This document shows positions 2,313-64,000 of a stretch of 64,000 bases of DNA, one piece after another. How positions within the stretch are numbered: the stretch's first letter is position 1; the number at the start of each line of letters is the position of its first letter. Under the pieces are notes generated by a model. That model worked only from the letters and a program-made list of their open reading frames with translations. It was not told the DNA's origin and searched no databases. Both the position numbers and the translations under genes were made by a program. Location: contig JAHRBC010000005.1 in NCBI GenBank assembly GCA_022702545.1, positions 4,154,001 through 4,218,000 on the forward strand. Reading direction: 5' to 3'. This DNA comes from Phycomyces nitens. Its lineage: Eukaryota > Mucoromycota > Mucoromycetes > Mucorales > Phycomycetaceae.

Positions 2313-2692
2313 TGTTGTATCTAACATAATCGTAGATTGAAACATTAATACAAATTACCAATATTGAAACATATTAAATAACTGACCTACTGGAAGTGCA
2401 CTAAAGAGTGTACCTTTCCAAATATATTATTCATACGTAAAGACACACTAACAACTAGTACTAACACACTGGTTAATAGTACTAAGTAAAATAACAAGTC
2501 ATAACTAATAGTTGGTAGAGAGAACAGACATTACATGATATCATCATATCATCACCAGCACTCATCTCAATGTCTATATAAACGCACAATACAAATAGCA
2601 ATAGTCTTCATCTCATTCACAAGTTATTTCTCTCTCAATAAACAAAGTTTCACCGTACTCTTGTCCATGCTTTGTTTTCCTCTGATTTAACA
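2313..2692 (-). repeat. Putative LTR truncating a Ty3/Gypsy pol
   Basis: On the plus strand this stretch begins TGTTGTATC and ends GATTTAACA, short imperfect inverted termini of the TG...CA type. The pol reading frame of the flanking retroelement runs into it directly: the last reverse-transcriptase-like codons are followed by codons read from this repeat. No 5-bp target duplication is seen at the proposed ends. Either the left boundary is wrong, or this is one LTR of an element whose remainder was lost. Confidence 0.45.
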
Positions 2693-3972
2693 CCTTGTTC
2701 AAATCCTGGAACTGGACACATAGCCTTAATTTGCCATCCTTTTTCTTGACATACAGGGCCGGGAATGACCAGCCGCCAGCACTCTCTCCTTTACCGTCTG
2801 GAGCATGGGTTGCTGGCATGATGATACCATGTTTCAACATGGTGTCAAGTTCGGTCTTGAGTATCTCTCTCTCTGCAAAGGATATGTAGTGATTGGGCCT
2901 TTTCATAATGGGTCTGGCCTCACCAGTATCTACGTGTAGTTCAACAATATTGGTTTGGGTAAGGTCATAATAGCTCATTCCAAATACATCCCTATATTCC
3001 AGAACTAGTGCCTTGAGGTCCTCCTTCTCCATGTCACTTAAGTCGGCTCCTCCCACGCTTTGTAGCAGTGCCTGTTCCAGTGCTCTGGGATCCTCTGCTT
3101 CCGACTTGTCCTGTTTCTCCTGTTCCACTAGCATTGCCATCTCCTTCCAGACCTCTTCTTCTTCTACTGGTAGTATGAGGTAGGAGCTGTCTCCCATTTC
3201 CTTGGTAGAGTACTCAGTTTCTGTTTCCACTGGTACTTCTCTCCTTTCTTCCTGCAGACTTGGGTAGGTTACATGTAGTGGCCTAACTGACCTATCACTT
3301 CCTCGTCCTTGCCAAGTATGGGTCGCCCAGTCGGTCACTATTCCCAACTTATTCATGGCTTTTCTACCTACTAGTAGTTCATAGTCTGGTATATCAAAGC
3401 AGATTGCCTCCACCACTATGGGCTCCAGCTCCCCTACTTTCAGTACAATATCTGTGGCAATTCCCAGCGACTTCACCTTCCTGCCGTCCACCATGATGTG
3501 AACCATTGAGGTGGGGGCCAAGTCCACAATCCCTGAGATTCTTGCCTGCTGCAGACTGATGATGGAGGATGTTAATCCACCATCCAAGATGTCGTCAACT
3601 GGCTTTCCATTGATCTTGGCACCTACATGGGGCGCACTGTTACCAGTATTGTCTTGAGTGGCCAAGAGAGCTCCAGTCTTGTCCTTCTTGTGGCCCCTAG
3701 ACTTCCTGGGTTGGACCAGCCTATGCCTGAGGTCTGAACGGGTGGTAGGTGACAGTTTGGCTATTTGGGCCATGGACAACCAGTATACCTGTTGGTTGAG
3801 TAGGTCTCCTGCGATTCCTCCAGTTTCCTTGGTGGCCTTAGTTCCCTGGGGACTTGTTGACTGTATTCCCATCATGGGATTGTCCTGCTTGGCCAGGAGG
3901 TCTTGGATTCTAATCTGCTTGTGGTTTTGCAACGTCTGGTCAGCCAGATCTCCAGCTATGTTCCCAATGTCC
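2693..3972 (-). pseudogene. Ty3/Gypsy pol fragment (protease and start of RT)
   Basis: This is the downstream part of a single-frame gag-pol polyprotein. It contains a retropepsin-like region (GKPVDDILDGGLTSSIIS) in which the expected D-(T/S)-G active site reads D-G-G. An acidic linker follows, then the entry to a reverse transcriptase (WSFPALYVKKKDGKLRLCV, then DLNK). The RT stops there because LTR-like sequence begins. The YxDD motif, RNase H and integrase are all absent. There is no native ATG, because the frame continues from the gag part on the other side of a solo LTR. This is a non-autonomous, dead copy. Confidence 0.85.
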
Positions 3973-4258
3973 TGTCAGGAACCGATCTGGACAGGAGCAA
4001 GGGCAGAGAAAACAGACAGAGAAATGTAGATAGATTCCTTTATTAAAGAAGTTGTTCACTTGATCTTTCTATGATCAAGCTCTACTGGTATTTATATGAA
4101 TATGTTTATGTCTGCTATTTATAAAAGATAATTATGATTGGTGTTATAAGTGTTCTGTCTATGGGAATGAATACAATAGTTTGATTGGTCAGAGAGTATT
4201 AAAGACGGAATCAGTTATGATTGGTCTAAAGGTCAAGACCAATTAGAGGTTCCTTACA
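3973..4258 (-). mobile_element. Solo LTR inserted in gag-pol
   Basis: A 286-bp segment has inverted ends TGTCAGGAACC and GGTTCCTTACA (TG...CA type). It is flanked on both sides by the 5-bp direct repeat TGTCC (3968-3972 and 4259-4263), the target-site duplication expected of LTR-element integration. No internal region remains, so it is a solo LTR left by LTR-LTR recombination. It differs from the host element's own LTR at 5427-5673, so it belongs to another family. It introduces the stop codon that ends the upstream gag frame. Confidence 0.9.
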
Positions 4259-4263
4259 TGTCC

Positions 4264-5267
4264 CGTTTGACTAGGGCGGGCACAGGTTTGTGCTCTGAAT
4301 CCTCCTCTGGATGGACCTCTTTGTCTTCCAGTGCAAGCATGGCTCCTTGGGGTCCTCCTCGCTTGCCTTTCTTTGGACATTTGAAGAAGGGATGGTCCAC
4401 CAGCTCTTTGCTACCCTTGCAGATCTTGCAGGTTTTCTTACAGACGGCTGCATTGTGGCCCTCTTCTTGGCAGCTGTTACAGGCGGACCGACAGATAGGA
4501 CTCTTTAAGTGCTCAGCAAGAAAGATCTGCATTTTGTCTATCCAGTTGACCAACTCATCGATACAGAATTCTCTACTCTGCTTCTTCTCTTTCTTGTGGG
4601 GCCTGTGGGTTTCTTTTGAAGCCTCCTTGTCCTTACCTTTGACAGACTTCTTCTTTTGCTTTCGTCCTGTCTCGCAAGACCGGTACTTCTCTTCCTCCAA
4701 GTCAGAATCATTGTTTGCTGATGAGTCTTCAGATTCTTGTCCATCACTGTCACTATCTTCATCCAAGTCATCCAACTCTTCGGCTAGTTTGATAGTTGCT
4801 CGAACTACTTGAGTTAAAGTGCTGGCCTTCTCCCTTTTGACTTCACTCCTTAAGTCTTTGTTATGGAGTCTGACAATGAATTTCTTCTGGATGTCCCTGT
4901 CAGAGAGCTTGGATGCCTCTTCATCTCCTTGGATTTCATCCTTATAGTCTTCCACTAACTCCTGGAAGCAATCAGCATACTCCCTGACGGACTCCTTGGA
5001 TTTTTGTTTGGCTTTTATTATTTTGTGCAGAGCATCCCAGTCCTTACGCGTGGGGTTATATCTTTCCTTGAATGCAGCTGTGAAGTCCTCCCAAGTCTTG
5101 AAGTCCTGTTGCATGAACCATTGCTGGTGTGTTGATTTTAATGTTTGGAGTACTGCGTCCAGTTTGTCCTGGTCCGTGTTGAGGCGGCTCATGTGTGTGA
5201 ATGCTTTGAACTGCAACAGCCACCTGGTGGCACCATCTGACTTGTGGAACGCTGGTGGTTTAGTCAT
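4264..5267 (-). pseudogene. Ty3/Gypsy gag-like capsid/nucleocapsid region
   Basis: The ATG at 5267 opens about 335 codons. The N-terminal half resembles the retrotransposon Gag family (FKAFTHMSRLNTDQDKLDAV, WEDFTAAFKERYNP, SVREYADCFQELVEDY). A Lys/Glu/Ser-rich hinge follows, then a CCHC zinc knuckle (CNSCQEEGHNAAVC) with more Cys pairs. The frame is open until the solo LTR, where a stop is read within LTR sequence. By codon phase, gag and pol would be one uninterrupted frame without the LTR and one target duplication. The gene is interrupted and presumably non-functional. Confidence 0.85.
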
Positions 5268-5408
5268 TATCAGTGCTAGTTTCGCTCTAGAATGACTCTT
5301 AGACTCTGGTTTGGCTGAAATTTTGGTGGGTGTGGTGGTAGGATGGGTTTTGGGAGTGATTGGCGTTGATTACTTAAGTAGAGCCCAGATAATCTTTCTG
5401 TGTTGAGT

Positions 5409-5673: not shown

Positions 5674-6007
5674 ATATTAATATTTATTAGAGCACTTTAT
5701 CTCCACAGATTGTGGTTGAAAGGTAATGTCATCGATGCCAAATTATAAAAGTCACATGTAATCTCTTTTCCTCTGGCAATGAGATAGTTGTAGTAACATA
5801 GAAAGGGCTTGTAAAATTTTAGGTAACGTTGTTTATCGAAATGAGCATTTTATTTGGTGTTGAAGATATTGAGCATTCTTAAAAATAATTTTTGTCCTGT
5901 GTGAACGAAACGGTAACATAACTGCCATTTTTTGAAACCGAATTTTTGTTTTTGACATTATTAGCTGCTTTATTTTATTTGGTGTCTGTATAATAATATG
6001 GGGAGAT
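5674..6007. other. Spacer between two transposons
   Basis: No gene is seen. An inverted copy of the GGTAG/CCATTTTT motif of the 944-1282 repeat family lies at about 5911-5932. Confidence 0.5.
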
Positions 6008-6086
6008 TCTTGATACACTCCCTTATTACACTCTGCCCGTCAAAAAACCAAAAAAGTCTGACGTAGGCTTTTTGTGAGGATTGTAA
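6008..6086 (+). repeat. MULE left terminal inverted repeat
   Basis: About 75 bp is nearly identical in inverted orientation to 10321-10398. Shared blocks are TCTTGATAYACTCCCTTATT, CACTCTGCC, an A-rich run around CCAAAAAAGT and TGACGTAG. Confidence 0.85.
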
Positions 6087-6091
6087 TTAGT

Positions 6092-6256
6092 TCTTCATAC
6101 ACTCCCTTGATACACTCCCACCAAAAGAAAATGGAAAAAGTGTGACATAGACTTTTTTTGTAAAGTGAATGTCTTTTTCATACACTCCCTCAATACACTC
6201 CCACCACAAGAATATCAAAAAAAACTAATGTAGACTTTTTCTTTGTAAAAGTGAAT
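6092..6256 (+). repeat. Tandem subterminal copies of the MULE end
   Basis: Two more copies of the terminal motif follow the left end in the same orientation, at about 6092-6165 and 6177-6256. Each starts TTCATACACTCCCT, continues ATACACTCCCACCA, and ends in a variant of TGTAGACTTTTT and GTAAA(A)GTGAA. The right end has only one copy. Iterated subterminal motifs are plausible transposase-binding sites. Confidence 0.8.
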
Positions 6257-6287
6257 TTTAGTACTGTAATTGATATAATATATTTTT

Positions 6288-7530
6288 TTAACTCTTAAAA
6301 AGGACCGAATAGTCGACACTGTTGCATGTCTGAGGGAATGCCTCTCTAATTCGAACATGGTCAAAGTTGAGAGTTGGCTTATCGAATTTCTTCATTTGGC
6401 CTGTAGGAGTACGCTGAAATTCAACGTAGTAAAAGTGCAAAAAGGAAAGAAGAAGTGTGATCGGATTGTCTGCAGATGTTAATTCCATGTGAATGAGTGG
6501 CCAATAAACCTGAGATTCATGGTATACATTCAGTTTGCTTGTGGTTCTGACAGAATGTTCGGAGTACGTGTAGATTATGACAGGTCTTTGGTATGTGTCG
6601 GCAACAATTTGAGGGCAGATAAAGGTGCTGAACCACAAGGATAGATCCGTTTGCCCCAAACAAGGCGATTTGCTGGATTGTAGTCTGTTGATCATTCTCT
6701 CCTCTTCATACTGGACTACAGCATCTGTACCAATTGCTTTGTATAGAGTGTCTTTGTATCTCATATACATCTTGAGCATATCACCCTTTACATCCATCCA
6801 TTTGCATTGGTCCTTGTGTATACCAAAACTGACAGCTCGAAAGCCACAGTTACCATCAGCACCAACACTATGAATAGCAGCAATTGCATTTCTAGTTGAC
6901 TGTGAGTGTATCCATTGGAACGGGGCATCTTTCTTTACATTGCGATATGTTTGTAAACTAAGTGAAAATAGGCCCAATATTTAGTTGTTTATAAGCATTG
7001 TTTTTAGTCTTTACATACCTATCATAGGCAGAGGAGCGATGAGATAAATCTCTTTTGGTGCTTGTTGTATCCTCTTTGGCTTTAATGGTGCTTTTGTCCG
7101 GATAAGAGAAGCTACCATTGACGGCACGTACAAGCAATGTCAACTTTCTTTTTTTCTGTTCAATGCTGACATGTCTTTCTTCAATCTCTAATTGTCTTTT
7201 CTTCTTGTTGAATTCTTCTTCTTCTTTTTTCACTTTTTCTTTTTTTTGATTTCTTTTTTTTGATTTCTTTTTTTTTTGGCTTTCGTCAAATAGCTCTTGG
7301 AGGATTCTCGGCTGTCCTGTTCCACTCTTAACCCCTCTCTTTGACTTTCTGCCTTTGCGGTTGGTGTTGGTCGAAGGAGGCATCAAGAGATCCATGTTAA
7401 TAGCTGGCTTAAGAATCACTGCCTCTGTTTTCTCCAAAATTTTGATTGCATCGGAAATCTCTTGCTGGGTACTGTATAAAGTGACAGTGTTGTATATCCC
7501 ATGAAGGAGTTGTTCTACACGTGCCAATAA
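6288..7530 (-). pseudogene. MULE gene, 3' part: Lys-rich linker and OTU protease
   Basis: Two exons are clear. The upstream one (ending at 7019) encodes a basic low-complexity linker (STNTNRKGRKSKRGVK, then Lys/Glu-rich helices). Its donor GTATGT pairs with the acceptor CACTTAG, and the second exon (6288-6957) continues in frame. That exon encodes an OTU-type cysteine protease: the catalytic Asp/Cys motif HSVGADGNCGFRAVSFGI, the W-x-S...IVADTYQRPVIIY core, and the His motif LSFLHFYYVEF near the end. OTU proteases cleave ubiquitin or ubiquitin-like chains. Here the domain is the C-terminal part of the transposase polyprotein. The stop follows SVDYSVLFKS. Confidence 0.8.
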
Positions 7531-8480
7531 GACCTCTTTGTTGGATGGACAGATCTTTTTCAGATCGAGATTTTATATAAAAAACATGAGTCATTAGACC
7601 AAGAACAAGAGTTTCAAGAAATGACCAATATAATTTTGTACGCTTACTTTCATCAAATTGATCAGCATCTTTTTCATTTTTCAACAAAGCACTCGTAGGA
7701 TCAGTTTCATCATCGCAATCTTCGGCGTCTTCAACCACCTCGAAATCTTCACCTAATAAACATAAACAGATAATCATAATGGGTTTAGTATTTATCTAAT
7801 AAAAATCTCTTTTCTTACTACAAGAATAGTCATTATTGTCGTTCTGAACAGAGGAAGTTGGTTCAGAAACCAAAACAGAGTTGGCAGTAGAATTATCTGC
7901 AGATTCTATTATTTACGTAAAAATAAAAGAAACACATGAAGCAATTAATTTAGAGGTCTTTACGGGCACTTGGGAGGCATTCATAGAAGCGCAAATAAAA
8001 GTATGTAATATGATTTATGGGTCATTAAAATTAAGCCTTTAATAAAGCATATATAATAACCAAGTTTTATAAAAGTTGTGGTTGTCAGGTTTATTTGGGT
8101 TTTATTTCCAAGAAAAAACAAGGTCCCTCTTTATCATAAATTGGAGTTTTACTTTCTTTCAACGGTACTCTGATATTATACTTACCTGTATAAATGCACC
8201 CCTAGAAGCCTCCATAGATTCTCAGCACTTACCTAAGTTTTCTTTGCTCTCTAGATCAGGCTCAACAACACAGTTGAGAGGGACATTCTCTGTTTTCTCT
8301 TCAAAGTATATGTAAAGAAATATCAGTTAGAACATATAAATGTTATGCTTAGTATAGTTGCTTTCAAGATACAAACTTTTGTCACATTCAAACCGCCAGC
8401 GCATATCAACAATATCAAGAGGTAAAACCTCAGGACTAGCAGCAATGATGCAAGTGCATGGCAACTTGTATCTGATACGA
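7531..8480 (-). pseudogene. MULE gene, small linking exons
   Basis: Several short coding-like pieces on the minus strand link the SWIM region to the OTU part. One spans about 8252-8300 (NVPLNCVVEPDLESKENL, with flanking acceptor and GTAAGT donor). Another acidic one spans about 7650-7752 (GEDFEVVEDAEDCDDETDPT). Exact exon borders are uncertain. A typical SWIM tail (LPLDIVDMRWRFECDK) sits at about 8385-8430. Confidence 0.5.
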
Positions 8481-9731
8481 TCCTAGCACTTGCAATTGAC
8501 ACCTTTTGAAACAAAATCAGATTGCAGGCTGGTAATTGTGTTGGTCCTGATCTTGTCCATTGCAAATCTGACCACTTTAAAAGCAAGATGTTTGAATCTA
8601 AACTCTTTTTCTCTGTCGAATAAAACTGAATCGATGCTGATCCTCTCAACATTTAGCTTTCTGTAGCGATTTTGTCTCTTTAAAAAAGTTAAAATATGGA
8701 TGATGGGTTTTCTGGGATTAACCATTTACCTTTTGCTCATAGTACGCATTCATTCGCTTAACAGTAAGCATGAGCTTGGATGCAGACTGGCTACCCAAAG
8801 CTCTTTTCAAACCTGAATGGAAGCTCTCTGCTCTTCCAGAAGTTCGGTTTCCCATATGAGGGTGATCGTTGGCATACATACCCACCCAGTGTTTGACCTC
8901 ATCATCCTGGAGCAAACTAATACAAGATTATGATTAGCAAAAGACTTTAACAAAAGCACTATAGCTTACACATCCTTCAAGTAACGCAATGCCAAACTTC
9001 CATTGTTCTTGAAGTAGCCATGAGTTGTGATCAGCTGTTCAAAGCTGCCAAGCGCCTCCTTATAGCTTGCTTCGTCAAAGCTAGACATGATCGCCTTGAA
9101 CTCCAATTCAGCTTGAGCACGACGAAGATTATACTCGGCTGAATCTATTGTTCCAATTGGGAGCTTCGTTGCCATGGTATTCCACAAATGCCAGGAACAG
9201 AGCAAGTGCTGGCTTTCGGGGAAAATGGCACCAATTGCATTGTGCAAAGCTTGCTCGTTGTCAGTGACAAATACTGATGGCGAAGGGTGTTCATTTGTAG
9301 GCCAAATGGCCTCTCGCAACTCCTCTAGGATCCAGGTATACGTTGCCTTAGTTTCCGAATTAACAAAAGCTGCTGCAATTGCAAAAGTTTGCAGCTTATT
9401 GCTTCCTTTATCAGAGGATGCATTACTTGTGCCAACAACATCTACAAGAGACAGCTTGTGGGCATTGGTCTTGTAGGTCGCATCGATTGTAACTGCCTCG
9501 GGCCAAATTCTTGCCTCTTGAATCGCTGCATAATGAATAAAGAAGATTCCTTTAACTTCTTACATGTCCCCTTTCGTCTCTACTTGAATGCGAACAGTAT
9601 ATCCAATGCTTTCAAGATGGGATATAAGAAGAAACATTTCTTTTCCATTCTCATTCTTCAAAAAAAGAGTTTGTATGTTATGAATGTCCTTTTTGATGAT
9701 ATTCGTTACATTCAAAGCTTTCAAAGTCTAG
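8481..9731 (-). pseudogene. MULE transposase core and SWIM finger, with nonsense codons
   Basis: The reading frame shows the MULE DDE landmarks in order. First is the first catalytic Asp in AVTIDATYKTNAHKLSLVDV, and then PSVFVTDNEQALHNAIGA with the second Asp and the LLCSWHLW motif. Next come a helical insert and GNRTSGRAESFHSGLKRALG, and last a SWIM-like CKC...LPCTC. In the SWIM finger the usual final His is replaced by Cys. The frame is broken by TAA at 9561-9563, between TKGDM and EVKGIFF, and by TAG at 8483-8485 inside the SWIM finger. Further upstream, a spliced intron (about 9726-9780) joins the FAR1 part. This copy cannot make full-length transposase. Confidence 0.85.
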
Positions 9732-9779
9732 GTAAAAATAATTTAGAAATAGTTGCCAAGTGTTGATATGTGCACTTAC

Positions 9780-10273
9780 GTCCATAACACTTGTAACTGG
9801 GTCTTTATGCCCACTAGCCAGCAAAGTGTAGATTCGTTCCATGGTTTTAGGTGGCTGCTTACGATTGACTGCATAAGTAGTGTTATCCTGTGAGATGGGA
9901 TGATTGTGCTCCATGTTGCTTCTAGTTATGGCGAAATCAAACAAGTTGAAAGAAGCAGGACAATCAAACTTTTGGGTGCTCCGTTTCACTTTTTTCTTTA
10001 CGGTCTCAGCACCTTTAAATGTTTCTTGCTTCTCAATGTCAGCAGAATTCTTTTCCAATTCACGTTTTAATCCTCCATGCTTGCAAATGTAAGCAAATTT
10101 TCCTCGCTTAAGGACTCGAGCTTTTGGCAGAAAAGATGACATTGTATTTTTTTTCCAAGGCTTTCAACATTTTCGGTAAGCTCTTCTTTCGATTGAAATT
10201 GTGTTCTAATGGTAACGTTTTTCTTAAATTTGGTGTTCATGTTATCGCGAGTTCGATTAGATTGAGAAAACAT
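9780..10273 (-). pseudogene. MULE gene, 5' part: FAR1-like DNA-binding domain
   Basis: This part encodes a FAR1-type WRKY-GCM1-like zinc-binding domain: FQSKEELTENVESLGKKI, then KRGKFAYICKHGG, KRSTQKFDCPASFNLF, and the HNHP motif in RSNMEHNHPISQDN. A putative ATG (10273) starts MFSQSNRTRDN. The first 45-55 codons are in a different frame from the rest, so a 1-nt frameshift lies near 10095-10150, where an A8 run also occurs. In plants and fungi this fold precedes MULE transposases and binds the terminal repeats. Confidence 0.75.
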
Positions 10274-10320
10274 TTTGACAAGATAAGGTTCAGGGTAGTT
10301 TTGAAAATATGAACACTGAA

Positions 10321-10398
10321 ATTCACTCTTTACAAAAGAGTCTACGTCACACTTTTTTGGATTTTTTGGCAGAGTGCAATAAGGGAGTATATCAAGAG
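10321..10398 (-). repeat. MULE right terminal inverted repeat
   Basis: The reverse complement matches 6008-6086 over about 75 bp with few differences and a small gap after CACTCTGCC. Confidence 0.85.
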
Positions 10399-11029
10399 TC
10401 TCTTGGTGTGCGTGTTTTTGTAAAATATGAAAATAAGATAAGATTTAAGCTTGCAAGAGATCTGGATAGGGAAAGGCCAATGCTCAGGATTTTCTTTGAC
10501 ATTCAAGTGAGAAAGCAGGGAATTGGCTGTGGTAATGGTATTGGTAGTAACAAAGGGTGCTTGGTCAACCATAAAGATCTAATGATGTCGTCACAAAGTT
10601 AAAGGCACAAATCAGAAAATAAAGGCAACTTAAGGGGTGGAGTCAAGAGGTGGTGGGAAGATTGACCTGTTAACACATTATGGGTGTCAGAGGTATGAGA
10701 GGAAAAAAGCCAAAAATTCGTGTACCAAAACGTCTGCCAGAGGGGAGTAGGGGAGGGGGGAACTTGAGTGAGCATGTAATGAGAAGATAATGGGCTTGAG
10801 AATTATCTTTTGTACCACAAAGAGAGCAAATGGGAGATGGAAATGTAGTAGGAACAAGACAATGCAAGACTGATCAACAAGAAACCTTGCAATGGAGCAA
10901 CCTTTCTTGTCATTCTACAAGAACCTTCCAAGTGTTGAAAGTTGTGGCTATTTGTATCAGAAAAGACGATTGCGTCTCTTATAAGCCAACAATGTCAGAA
11001 ATGCGCAGAAAATAAAAATAAAAAATAAA
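10399..11029. other. Spacer, no clear gene
   Basis: Short frames occur on both strands without motifs. The stretch at 10830-11015 may be decayed sequence from the Tc1/mariner copy that follows, but it does not translate to recognisable transposase. Confidence 0.45.
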
Positions 11030-61568: not shown

Positions 61569-62445
61569 TCACTCAACTGTGGTGTGTATACCACAATATG
61601 AAGCCTGTTGTTCATTCGAAACACAGGCAAAAGCAATAGGAAAAGATTTAAGGGTCTCCCCTCCAAGACTATGGATTCCTTCCGCACAAATGAGCGGCAT
61701 TCCGAGATTATTGGTGGAGTAAATTGCGTCTACAACCATTACCTCAGAGAAACAACGGGCTCTCTCCAGCATCTTTGGATGAGCAAACATAATCCTCTCG
61801 AGGGACCCATTCTTGCTCACATCATAGCGAACTTGATATCCTTTTGCTTCCATATCCCTCACAAGTTTTGTTCCAGCATTCTCAATAACGGGGGCAGAAA
61901 CCCGAGCGAATGCGGCCTTCATGTTGTTAATATCATTTATGTACAATTTATGACCAGGGGTGGTGTCATCGTTGATTGCTTTTTGGATCTCACAAGAAGT
62001 TGTCTTTGCTCCAATAAGCTTCAGAATTTCTCTGGCATCGTCTACATTCATCTTTGACAATCTGCCTTTCAGTGTCGATTCTAGACACTCATCATCAAGA
62101 GGATGATTGTAATATGACTCAATATCATGAGTGGCTTTCAAAGGAAGATACCCTTTGATGCTCTTCTTGTAGGAAACCTTCAAGAGATAAGGGGATTCAG
62201 TCATTCTACTCGATGGAATCCTTATTCTGTCTTTGTCTTTGATTTTGCGGGTGTTCTTATACTATCCACCCTTGGAAAACTTCAAGTAAGCTCGAGTTGG
62301 CTTACGGTCTTTGATTGTCAGGCTAAAGTTATTGGCAAGGGTATACTCTTGCATCTTTCCAATTGCCATGGTCATGTCCTGGTATCCATTAGCAGGTGGG
62401 GCTGGGAGGGCTTGACGAACAGGATATTATTCCTTTCCATCGATA
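61569..62445 (-). pseudogene. Second MULE transposase, 5' half only
   Basis: A FAR1-like start lies at about 62,215-62,420 (AIGKMQEYTLANNFSLTIKD, KPTRAYLKFSKGG). It is broken by an in-frame TAG at 62262-62264. The open frame 61569-62204 then includes a helical region (DDECLESTLKGRLSKMNVDD). The beginning of the MULE catalytic fold follows: HPKMLERARCFSEVMVVDAI with the first catalytic Asp, then YSTNNLGMPLICAEGI. The frame ends at 61569 before the second Asp, the Glu, the SWIM finger or any OTU part. It is a different subfamily from the element at 6008-10398. Confidence 0.75.
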
Positions 62446-64000
62446 AAAATAGTTTCTTTATTGGTAAGGTTCATAATAAAGTGAGTTCTATAAAGTATTT
62501 GTAATTTCAAGTTGGTCACGAGTAAAGTGATCTTGTTGTAATCTCCGGGGAAATGACTAATAGATGCAATAGATGATTAGTTCTTACACGATGAGTATAC
62601 GAAAGAGAAGTAAGCTTTATTTAAAGTCTTTGAATATCTTTTTTTCAGGACACAACATTTTATTTCGTAAACTGGGAACAGGCACTAAATGCCGGACCAC
62701 AAGTCCCTTTCAAAAAGTCTGGTAAAACAAAAGCGTCGTGCCCTTAAGATCGCTGAAGAAGTTTTGGAGGTATTCCTTCCATGTTGAACTAGAGCAAGTA
62801 GCAACTATGGCTACCGTATTTTTTTTTAACAGCAATTGAGTGGCATTCAAAATACAGTTGATGTTGGCTATATTTCTTGGATATATTTTGTTCTCGGTAA
62901 CCTTATAAAGAAACTTTTCTGTCAATTGTTTGCCTCAAAGTATGCTGATTTGATGGTTTAAATAATGTCTTTCAAAATGATAACTGCTCAAACCTTGGGT
63001 TAAGTATAGACTTGTTTCTTATATATAAGTTTTATTTACGACTCATTCTTACTTGTAGCCGATTGTGCTTAATGAACTGCGAATAAAGACATTCATACTG
63101 GACTTGTATTCTTTATAAGGTTTGTAAGAAAAAGGTAATAGTCTTTCGGCAAATGTTTTCTCATCCACTATGTTTGGTGGTAAATGCTGCACAATTGTAT
63201 TGGAAAGAAGCTGCTTGTTTTATTGGCAGTACAGAGCCTTGATATGTTCCCATGAATCTCCTTGGGCTGATGTAGAATCAACAATAAACCCTCAGGGTGT
63301 TGTCAGTCAAATATCGTTGCTAATAAAATGAATCACATAAAGCTTAGGGGACACAGATTTATCAAGTGAGGTAAGTTTAACAAATATTGTTGTGTCTAAT
63401 AAGTCTTTACATATTTTTTTATTCTTCCCATTCTTTTAAAAAAGCCATCTTACCTTTACATCTGTTATATCTATAATGCACTTTTATACATATCATTTAC
63501 CTTTATACAATCCCTGTAATTATTTTCTACTACATAGGCCGTCTTTTTTCTTTCTTGGACCTATGGGATTCGGACTGAGAGATTTAGAATTTTAATATCC
63601 AACAAAAGGATACAGTGAGTCTTATATTTAATCATCTAGTGAAGTGTATCAAACCTATATAGATCCCTGAAATTCATAAAGACTATTCTTCAAAGTATAA
63701 AGTTTACAATGAGAAAATAGATGCTATATTTAACAAATAGTGTGTCAATTTATCTTCATTGAGGGTAGCCAACCGATAATCTATAGCCCTGGATGTTGGC
63801 TAATGAGACATATTTGACCTCCTAATAAAAATATCTATTTTTCATTTTCTACTATGAGAATACGATATAAAAACTTACTGAAATGAAGAACACAAGCTTG
63901 TTATTAATAAATATATATATATCACTATAGAAACTCTAATATTTTGTATGTAATCGATTTAGCATTGAATTGCAATGAGCTACATATGCTTTAGCTGGTT
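62446..64000. other. A+T-rich end of window
   Basis: No supported gene. A minus-strand frame at 62710-62925 is weakly protein-like (SSSTWKEYLQNFFSDLKGT). The block GTCGTGCCC(A/T)T(A/G)AGATCGCTG at 62735-62755 is shared with 55296-55316, so transposon debris continues here. Confidence 0.45.

What the first reader, a model, noticed from the sequence alone, without database searches (positions are those of the whole stretch)
6008..10398. MULE transposon carrying an OTU deubiquitinase-like domain
One minus-strand gene between matching inverted termini reads FAR1-like domain, MULE transposase, SWIM finger, Lys-rich linker and OTU protease with the catalytic GADGNC and HFYYV motifs. The OTU part is joined in phase to the linker by a normal intron, so it is part of the element and not a neighbouring host gene. 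SUMO-protease (ULP1) MULEs are known in plants. An attached OTU protease suggests that some elements protect or process transposase, or counter ubiquitin-based silencing. How widely this architecture has been described I cannot say.
Basis: partly seen in the sequence, partly recalled or inferred. Interest (0 to 1): 0.75.

Follow-up and report, generated by a model that had tools for sequence, protein, structure and literature searches.

The report
Transposon with fused OTU protease domain
A jumping gene in a Mucor-like fungus encodes, in one protein, its DNA-moving enzyme and a domain shaped like an enzyme that removes ubiquitin tags; intact recent copies exist, so the pairing belongs to the element, although similar pairings were already known in other transposons.

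Summary
Confirmed. Window 6001-10404 (minus) is a 4.4-kb Mutator-like element whose nine-exon gene reads FAR1-like / MULE transposase / degenerate SWIM / acidic and Lys-rich linker / OTU. The window copy is broken. The same genome holds seven further near full-length copies (93.7-96.1% identical), six with both termini; two, 99.7% alike, are open through 1056 codons. OTU identity: the family profile hits human OTUD5 at E=2.8e-8, and the AlphaFold model (pLDDT 80.8) matches OTU structures, though Pfam alone misses it. Asp/Cys/His are kept in 19 of 19 near-full OTU copies. OTU shows purifying selection (pN/pS 0.09; transposase 0.05). Diverged MULE families here, and Mucor saturninus and Phycomyces proteins, carry it too. 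Five OTU-less relatives read are truncated; four were not read; some more distant MULEs show no OTU. Precedents: Ginger1 and Helentron OTUs, and a Hydra MULE listed with an OTU gene; so this is a new variant, not a new kind. Deubiquitinase activity and a role in transposition are inferred, not shown.

The parts
6001..10404 (-). whole Mutator-like element, window copy (broken)
   Evidence: 93.7-96.1% identical to seven other near full-length copies in the genome
10335..10404 (-). 5' terminal inverted repeat (about 70 bp)
   Evidence: pairs with 6001-6073
6001..6073 (-). 3' terminal inverted repeat
6051..6256 (-). subterminal tandem repeats, about 83-bp period, carrying near copies of the terminal motif
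9780..10273 (-). exon 1, FAR1-like N-terminal domain; frame broken in this copy, open in several others
8970..9727 (-). exon 2, MULE DDE transposase domain (PF10551); stop codon at 9562-9560 shared with the C7:4041662 copy
8730..8916 (-). exon 3, rest of transposase core
8377..8677 (-). exon 4, degenerate SWIM-like zinc motif (CKC..CTC); stop codon at 8485-8483 in this copy
8233..8298 (-). exon 5, linker
7819..7905 (-). exon 6, linker
7648..7752 (-). exon 7, acidic linker
7019..7535 (-). exon 8, Lys-rich linker
6288..6957 (-). exon 9, OTU protease-like domain with DGNC and HFYYVEF; open in this copy; joined to exon 8 by a GT-AG intron (6958-7018) in phase

Best explanation
This is one degraded copy of a cut-and-paste Mutator-like transposon of a Mucor-like fungus whose single transposase protein ends in an OTU domain. 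Shown: the fusion lies in one gene model between the termini, complete copies exist, the OTU fold and its Asp-Cys-His are conserved, and selection has kept it. Inferred: the OTU is an active deubiquitinase that travels with the transposase to the element ends and strips ubiquitin there, most likely from the transposase itself or its bound complex, so that it is not sent to the proteasome before excision and insertion are finished.
Against: No activity data and no transcript data. The catalytic loop varies outside family 1: DGWC in most family-2/3 OTUs seen, also DGLC, DDWC and, in one M. saturninus protein, DGKC; the Cys stays. Four family-2 copies (one, C5:7557391, with a 657-aa frame free of stops) have no OTU hit within 12 kb, and 30 low-scoring hits of another MULE group have none downstream (0 of 30), so MULEs can do without it. 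Four of eight near full-length copies have a frame break in the linker. Subgroup g2 versus g3 shows no constraint on OTU (1 synonymous, 4 non-synonymous; too few to judge). The substrate is a guess. Linkage of transposase and OTU in one ripe protein assumes no internal cleavage.
Confidence: 0.5

Rival explanations
1. The OTU is an active deubiquitinase whose main target is host: ubiquitinated repair or chromatin proteins at the break or at the silenced donor site, not the transposase.
For: A role through DNA repair was proposed for the OTU/Ulp1 tails of Ginger1 transposases (PMC2836005, passages).
Against: No substrate evidence either way; fusion in cis works for both targets.
Confidence: 0.25
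2. The OTU acts as a processing peptidase or as a ubiquitin-binding module without chain cleavage, for example cutting the linker to release the transposase.
For: A long acidic and Lys-rich linker separates the two parts; the loop varies (DGWC) in families 2 and 3.
Against: Asp, Cys and His kept in 19 of 19 copies argues against a dead module; OTUs are known as isopeptidases (recalled, and PMC10318531 passages).
Confidence: 0.12
3. Captured host gene fragment carried as a passenger (transduplication) with no role.
For: MULEs capture host fragments (PMC13317346, passages); two single-copy OTU loci without a MULE hit nearby exist.
Against: pN/pS about 0.1 in two of three subgroup comparisons; OTU at the same place behind transposases only about 40% alike and in M. 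saturninus and Phycomyces proteins.
Confidence: 0.08
4. A neighbouring host OTU gene wrongly joined to the transposase.
For: None found beyond the six-frame ORFs being separate.
Against: The OTU exon lies inside the termini, after a GT-AG intron, in 8 of 8 near full-length copies (C4c lacks the outer part of one end); 14 of 23 MULE-exon hits have OTU under 5 kb downstream on the same strand, 13 of the 14 at 1966-1989 bp.
Confidence: 0.02

Closest known systems
MuDR-6_HM (Hydra), MULE group 14 of Dupeyron et al. 2019 (PMC6446971, table passage)
   Same: A Mutator-like element listed with 'Ovarian Tumour Gene' among its other motifs/ORFs and one ORF
   Different: Cnidarian host; no TIR and no zinc finger listed; its sequence was not compared here
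MULE-Mucorales, group 5 of Dupeyron et al. 2019 (same table)
   Same: Mucoromycota, SWIM, 40-bp TIR, 10-bp TSD, one ORF
   Different: No OTU listed; sequences not available here, so membership not tested
Ginger1 transposons with C-terminal OTU or Ulp1 (PMC2836005, passages)
   Same: Cut-and-paste DNA transposon whose transposase ends in an OTU protease domain
   Different: Gypsy-integrase-like transposase, not MULE
Helentrons with OTU-like proteases and VTD deubiquitinases (PMC4067079, PMC9741609; passages)
   Same: Transposon-borne OTU with conserved catalytic residues; [quoted passage not shown]
   Different: Rolling-circle elements with Rep/Helicase
KI-MULEs / Ulp1-carrying Mutator elements of plants (PMC13317346, PMC2836005; passages)
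   Same: MULE with a ubiquitin-like-protease domain
   Different: Ulp1 instead of OTU; non-TIR MULEs in Arabidopsis, where it is one of three coding genes
OTUD5/DUBA and other OTU deubiquitinases
   Same: Fold and DGxC..H layout
   Different: No transposase attached (recalled); 8-26% identity in the structural alignments shown

Membership tests
Mutator-like element (MULE) | MULE-type DDE transposase | tested here: met
   PF10551 86.4 bits, cut-off 27.6; CSWHLW motif seen in the translation (recalled as typical)
Mutator-like element (MULE) | terminal inverted repeats | tested here: met
   about 70 bp, 88-91% complementary; same ends in other copies
Mutator-like element (MULE) | 8-11 bp target-site duplication | tested here: inconclusive
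   exact in 2 of 8 copies (C4a 8-10 bp, C9 8 bp), a 7-of-8 match in C7a, none clear in the window copy and the other four
Mutator-like element (MULE) | dispersed multicopy, mobile | tested here: met
   38 terminus hits, 22 transposase-exon hits at 85% or more (lower bounds); two copies 99.7% identical
OTU cysteine protease | OTU fold | tested here: met
OTU cysteine protease | catalytic Asp, Cys, His | tested here: met
   19 of 19 near-full family-1 copies; D, C and H invariant in 15 of 15; their catalytic role is recalled from OTUD5
OTU cysteine protease | match to Pfam OTU/otubain over the curated cut-off | tested here: not met
   15.9 of 24.3 bits (PF10275); PF02338 finds two other places in the genome but not these copies. 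A divergent OTU branch; fold and residues carry the assignment
OTU cysteine protease | ubiquitin cleavage | not testable with these tools
   needs biochemistry
FAR1-type DNA-binding domain | match to PF03101 over cut-off | tested here: not met
   14.9 of 28.1 bits, not listed for the intact copy at E<=1; family 3 (L050) 13.6 bits, P0005 13.9 bits; FAR1-like only
SWIM zinc finger | CxC..CxH (recalled consensus) | tested here: not met
   last ligand is Cys (CPC/CTC) in this family and in the M. saturninus proteins; CxC..CxH in L048, L049 and L050
Ginger1 | Gypsy-integrase-type transposase | tested here: not met
   core matches MULE models
KI-MULE | Ulp1 domain | tested here: not met
   no Ulp1 family listed by Pfam scan at E<=1; OTU instead
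MULE-Mucorales group 5 (Dupeyron 2019) | clade in their transposase tree | not tested
   their sequences were not at hand

The most novel reading that the evidence does not exclude
The OTU is a working deubiquitinase kept for a long time as a standard part of a Mucoromycota MULE clade (a DGNC branch and a DGWC branch), acting in cis on its own transposase, and at least once released as a single-copy host gene. These elements would then be a direct test bed for ubiquitin control of DNA transposition.
Probability: 0.3. Interest if true: 0.68.

Novelty: new variant of a known kind. Interest (0 to 1): 0.45.

Why it matters
Several unrelated transposon types (Ginger1, Helentrons, plant and Hydra MULEs) carry ubiquitin- or SUMO-protease domains, and PMC9741609 notes that transposon OTUs had not been tested for activity. 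This fungal family adds a cut-and-paste element with the protease fused to the transposase, recent complete copies, other MULEs in the same genome that seem to lack it, and a related species with the same kind of protein. That makes the question 'why do transposons keep deubiquitinases?' testable by mutating one Cys in a transposition assay.

Tried and rejected
Rejected: neighbouring host gene; OTU-less intact sisters within family 1, as far as read (five of the nine MULE hits without OTU within 5 kb were read; they break off at element positions 2411, 2648, 2713, 2807 and 2939 with no right terminus in the stretch held); chance motif.

Led nowhere: a first AlphaFold job on a shallow alignment (pLDDT 45.7) and its Foldseek search (no OTU among the 50 of 395 rows shown, best E 0.54). 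A single-sequence PDB search gave only weak hits, led by ERp44 at 0.088, with OTUD5 at 0.24. Literature searches showed no description of an OTU-carrying MULE in fungi in their listings or in the passages opened; they cover only the held open-access library, one search listed 20 of 1,272 papers and 15 of 54, and Babu et al. 2006 and the paper asked for by DOI as Muszewska 2017 were not held; what those two papers hold is recalled only. tRNA and Rfam scans of the window were empty. A species name for the genome was not sought. The flanks of the two single-copy OTU loci could not be read.

Results against the reading: 9 of 23 family-1 MULE hits have no OTU within 5 kb downstream, and 6 of 24 family-2/3 MULE hits none within 2.5 kb. 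In one search I gave 33 of 72 OTU hits and 23 of 82 MULE hits; three smaller family-1-like MULE pieces (C1:6134856, C8:1259387, C5:767334) were left out. In one search I gave 24 of the 68 MULE hits, those I judged near full length, and 37 of the 98 OTU hits, so it is a selected set; itself scored 63 of 174 candidates. One search took the 30 lowest-scoring MULE hits of a distinct kind: 0 of 30 have OTU downstream within 6 kb. No tree was made, so 'sub-branch' rests on identity alone, and a copy of 68% identity (C10:302227) does have OTU.
Full report
What is there. The minus strand of window 6001-10404 holds a 4.4-kb element with inverted termini of about 70 bp and 83-bp subterminal repeats at the 3' end. 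The window lies at C7:4154001-4218000 of a 49-Mb, 11-contig genome. That the host is a Mucor-like fungus is an inference from the nearest proteins (Mucor saturninus, Phycomyces).

Gene model. I laid nine exons on the window by eye and projected them on an alignment of eight near full-length copies (the window's included) plus one truncated copy. All eight introns are GT-AG in the eight near full-length copies, except for one donor of intron 1 in copy C7a. Two of the eight, C5 and C9, read open from ATG to stop, 1056 aa. They are 99.7% identical over 4489 aligned bases, which points to recent movement. C4b is open from exon 2's later part through OTU; C4a, C4c, C7a and C7b have a frame break in the linker exon. 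The window copy has a broken frame in exon 1 and two stop codons, and is open from there through linker and OTU. It shares both stops with the copy at C7:4041662, 118 kb away, which has other flanks; the simplest reading is that a defective copy was moved in trans, but duplication is not excluded.

Element or neighbour. Seven of the eight near full-length copies have both outer termini, and C4c lacks the outer part of one. Of 23 family-1 MULE hits, 14 have an OTU hit on the same strand within 5 kb, 13 of them at 1966-1989 bp. Five of the nine others were read: each breaks off at a different point before OTU and has no right terminus in the stretch read. The remaining four were not read; two of them have OTU hits 7.5-7.7 kb downstream. 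Of 17 OTU hits without a MULE hit upstream, 12 have a terminus hit within 1 kb. Exact target-site duplications flank copies C4a and C9; C7a has a near match and the other five copies have none clear.

Selection. Between subgroups g1 (C4b, C5, C9) and g2 (C4a, C4c, C7a) the OTU exon has 17 synonymous and 6 non-synonymous differences (pN/pS 0.094) and the MULE exon 26 and 5 (0.052); g1 against g3 (window, C7b) gives 0.117 and 0.113; g2 against g3 gives 1.05 for OTU on only five changes, 0.127 for MULE. The subgroups were set by eye from the translations. The P values treat changes as independent and are rough. Asp, Cys and His are intact in 19 of 19 near-full OTU copies, 11 of them free of stops. 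In seven pairs from other families OTU pN/pS is 0.19-0.47.

How widespread. A second MULE family (701-711 aa first ORF) and a third (L050) in the same genome also have an OTU-type exon downstream, joined by introns that I placed by eye, mostly with DGWC instead of DGNC. In a selected set of 24 family-2/3 transposase hits, 18 have OTU within 2.5 kb; four family-2 copies of 66-69% identity have none within 12 kb, among them one with a 657-aa frame free of stops, while another of 68% has one. A more distant group of 30 low-scoring MULE hits (16 with frames of 450-510 aa, some below Pfam's cut-off) has no OTU hit downstream (0 of 30). In a 5.8-billion-protein database three searches returned six proteins in all: four from M. 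saturninus and two from Phycomyces blakesleeanus. Five of the six hold the OTU part; P0004 (743 aa) ends before it, perhaps by annotation. The two Phycomyces proteins have SWIM and OTU but only part of the transposase and no Pfam MULE hit, so the full architecture there is inferred. The search finds only relatives sharing short exact words, so absence elsewhere means little.

Function. Transposase plus conserved OTU, under selection, in one protein: the best mechanism is a deubiquitinase delivered to the element ends, protecting the transposase complex from the proteasome. Activity, linkage preference and substrate are inferred. The chief rival is a host target at the break or in chromatin; a role through DNA repair was suggested for Ginger1 (PMC2836005, passages). 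That some MULEs seem to lack OTU suggests that it is helpful rather than required for the superfamily.

Compared with what is known. Ginger1 transposases with C-terminal OTU or Ulp1 (2010), Helentrons with OTU and VTD deubiquitinases (2014, 2022) and plant MULEs with Ulp1 are in print (passages). Dupeyron et al. 2019 list MuDR-6_HM of Hydra with 'Ovarian Tumour Gene' (abstract and table passages). So OTU in a transposon is known, and in a MULE at least listed. I saw no description of it in fungi in ten searches of the held library, which lacks most subscription papers; [quoted passage not shown] Verdict: a new variant of a known kind, moderately interesting.

Noticed in passing
window 61593-62576 (minus): Fragment of a family-2 MULE transposase, 77% identical to L048 over residues 1-327, with two stops; the second MULE in this window.
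   Followed up: partly
window 2613-5369 (minus): LTR-retrotransposon-like gag (with zinc knuckle) and protease/RT-like ORFs just beside the element; named from the sequence, no search made.
   Followed up: no
L057 147-821 (C4:922046-922720) and L056 379-1032 (C5:4441281-4441853): Two single-copy OTU loci, 46% alike and 29-38% to the element OTU, open frames with DGNC and HF, no MULE hit nearby: domesticated transposon OTUs or relatives of the donor gene.
   Followed up: partly
G000 C5:7557391, C5:490291, C8:1072215, C4:2558915: Family-2 MULE copies of 66-69% identity with no OTU hit within 12 kb downstream: secondary loss or the state before capture; no tree made.
   Followed up: partly
window copy and C7:4041662-4045981: Both share the same two stop codons in exons 2 and 4 yet have different flanks, as if a defective copy was moved in trans.
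   Followed up: partly
L050 3530-3899: A 130-bp inverted repeat, 98% complementary with 110 bp between the arms, just upstream of the family-3 MULE gene.
   Followed up: no
C4:7364538 flank and C9:2871167 flank: The flank beyond one end of copy C4b equals the left flank of copy C9 for about 19 bases, perhaps recombination between copies or insertion into the same repeat.
   Followed up: no
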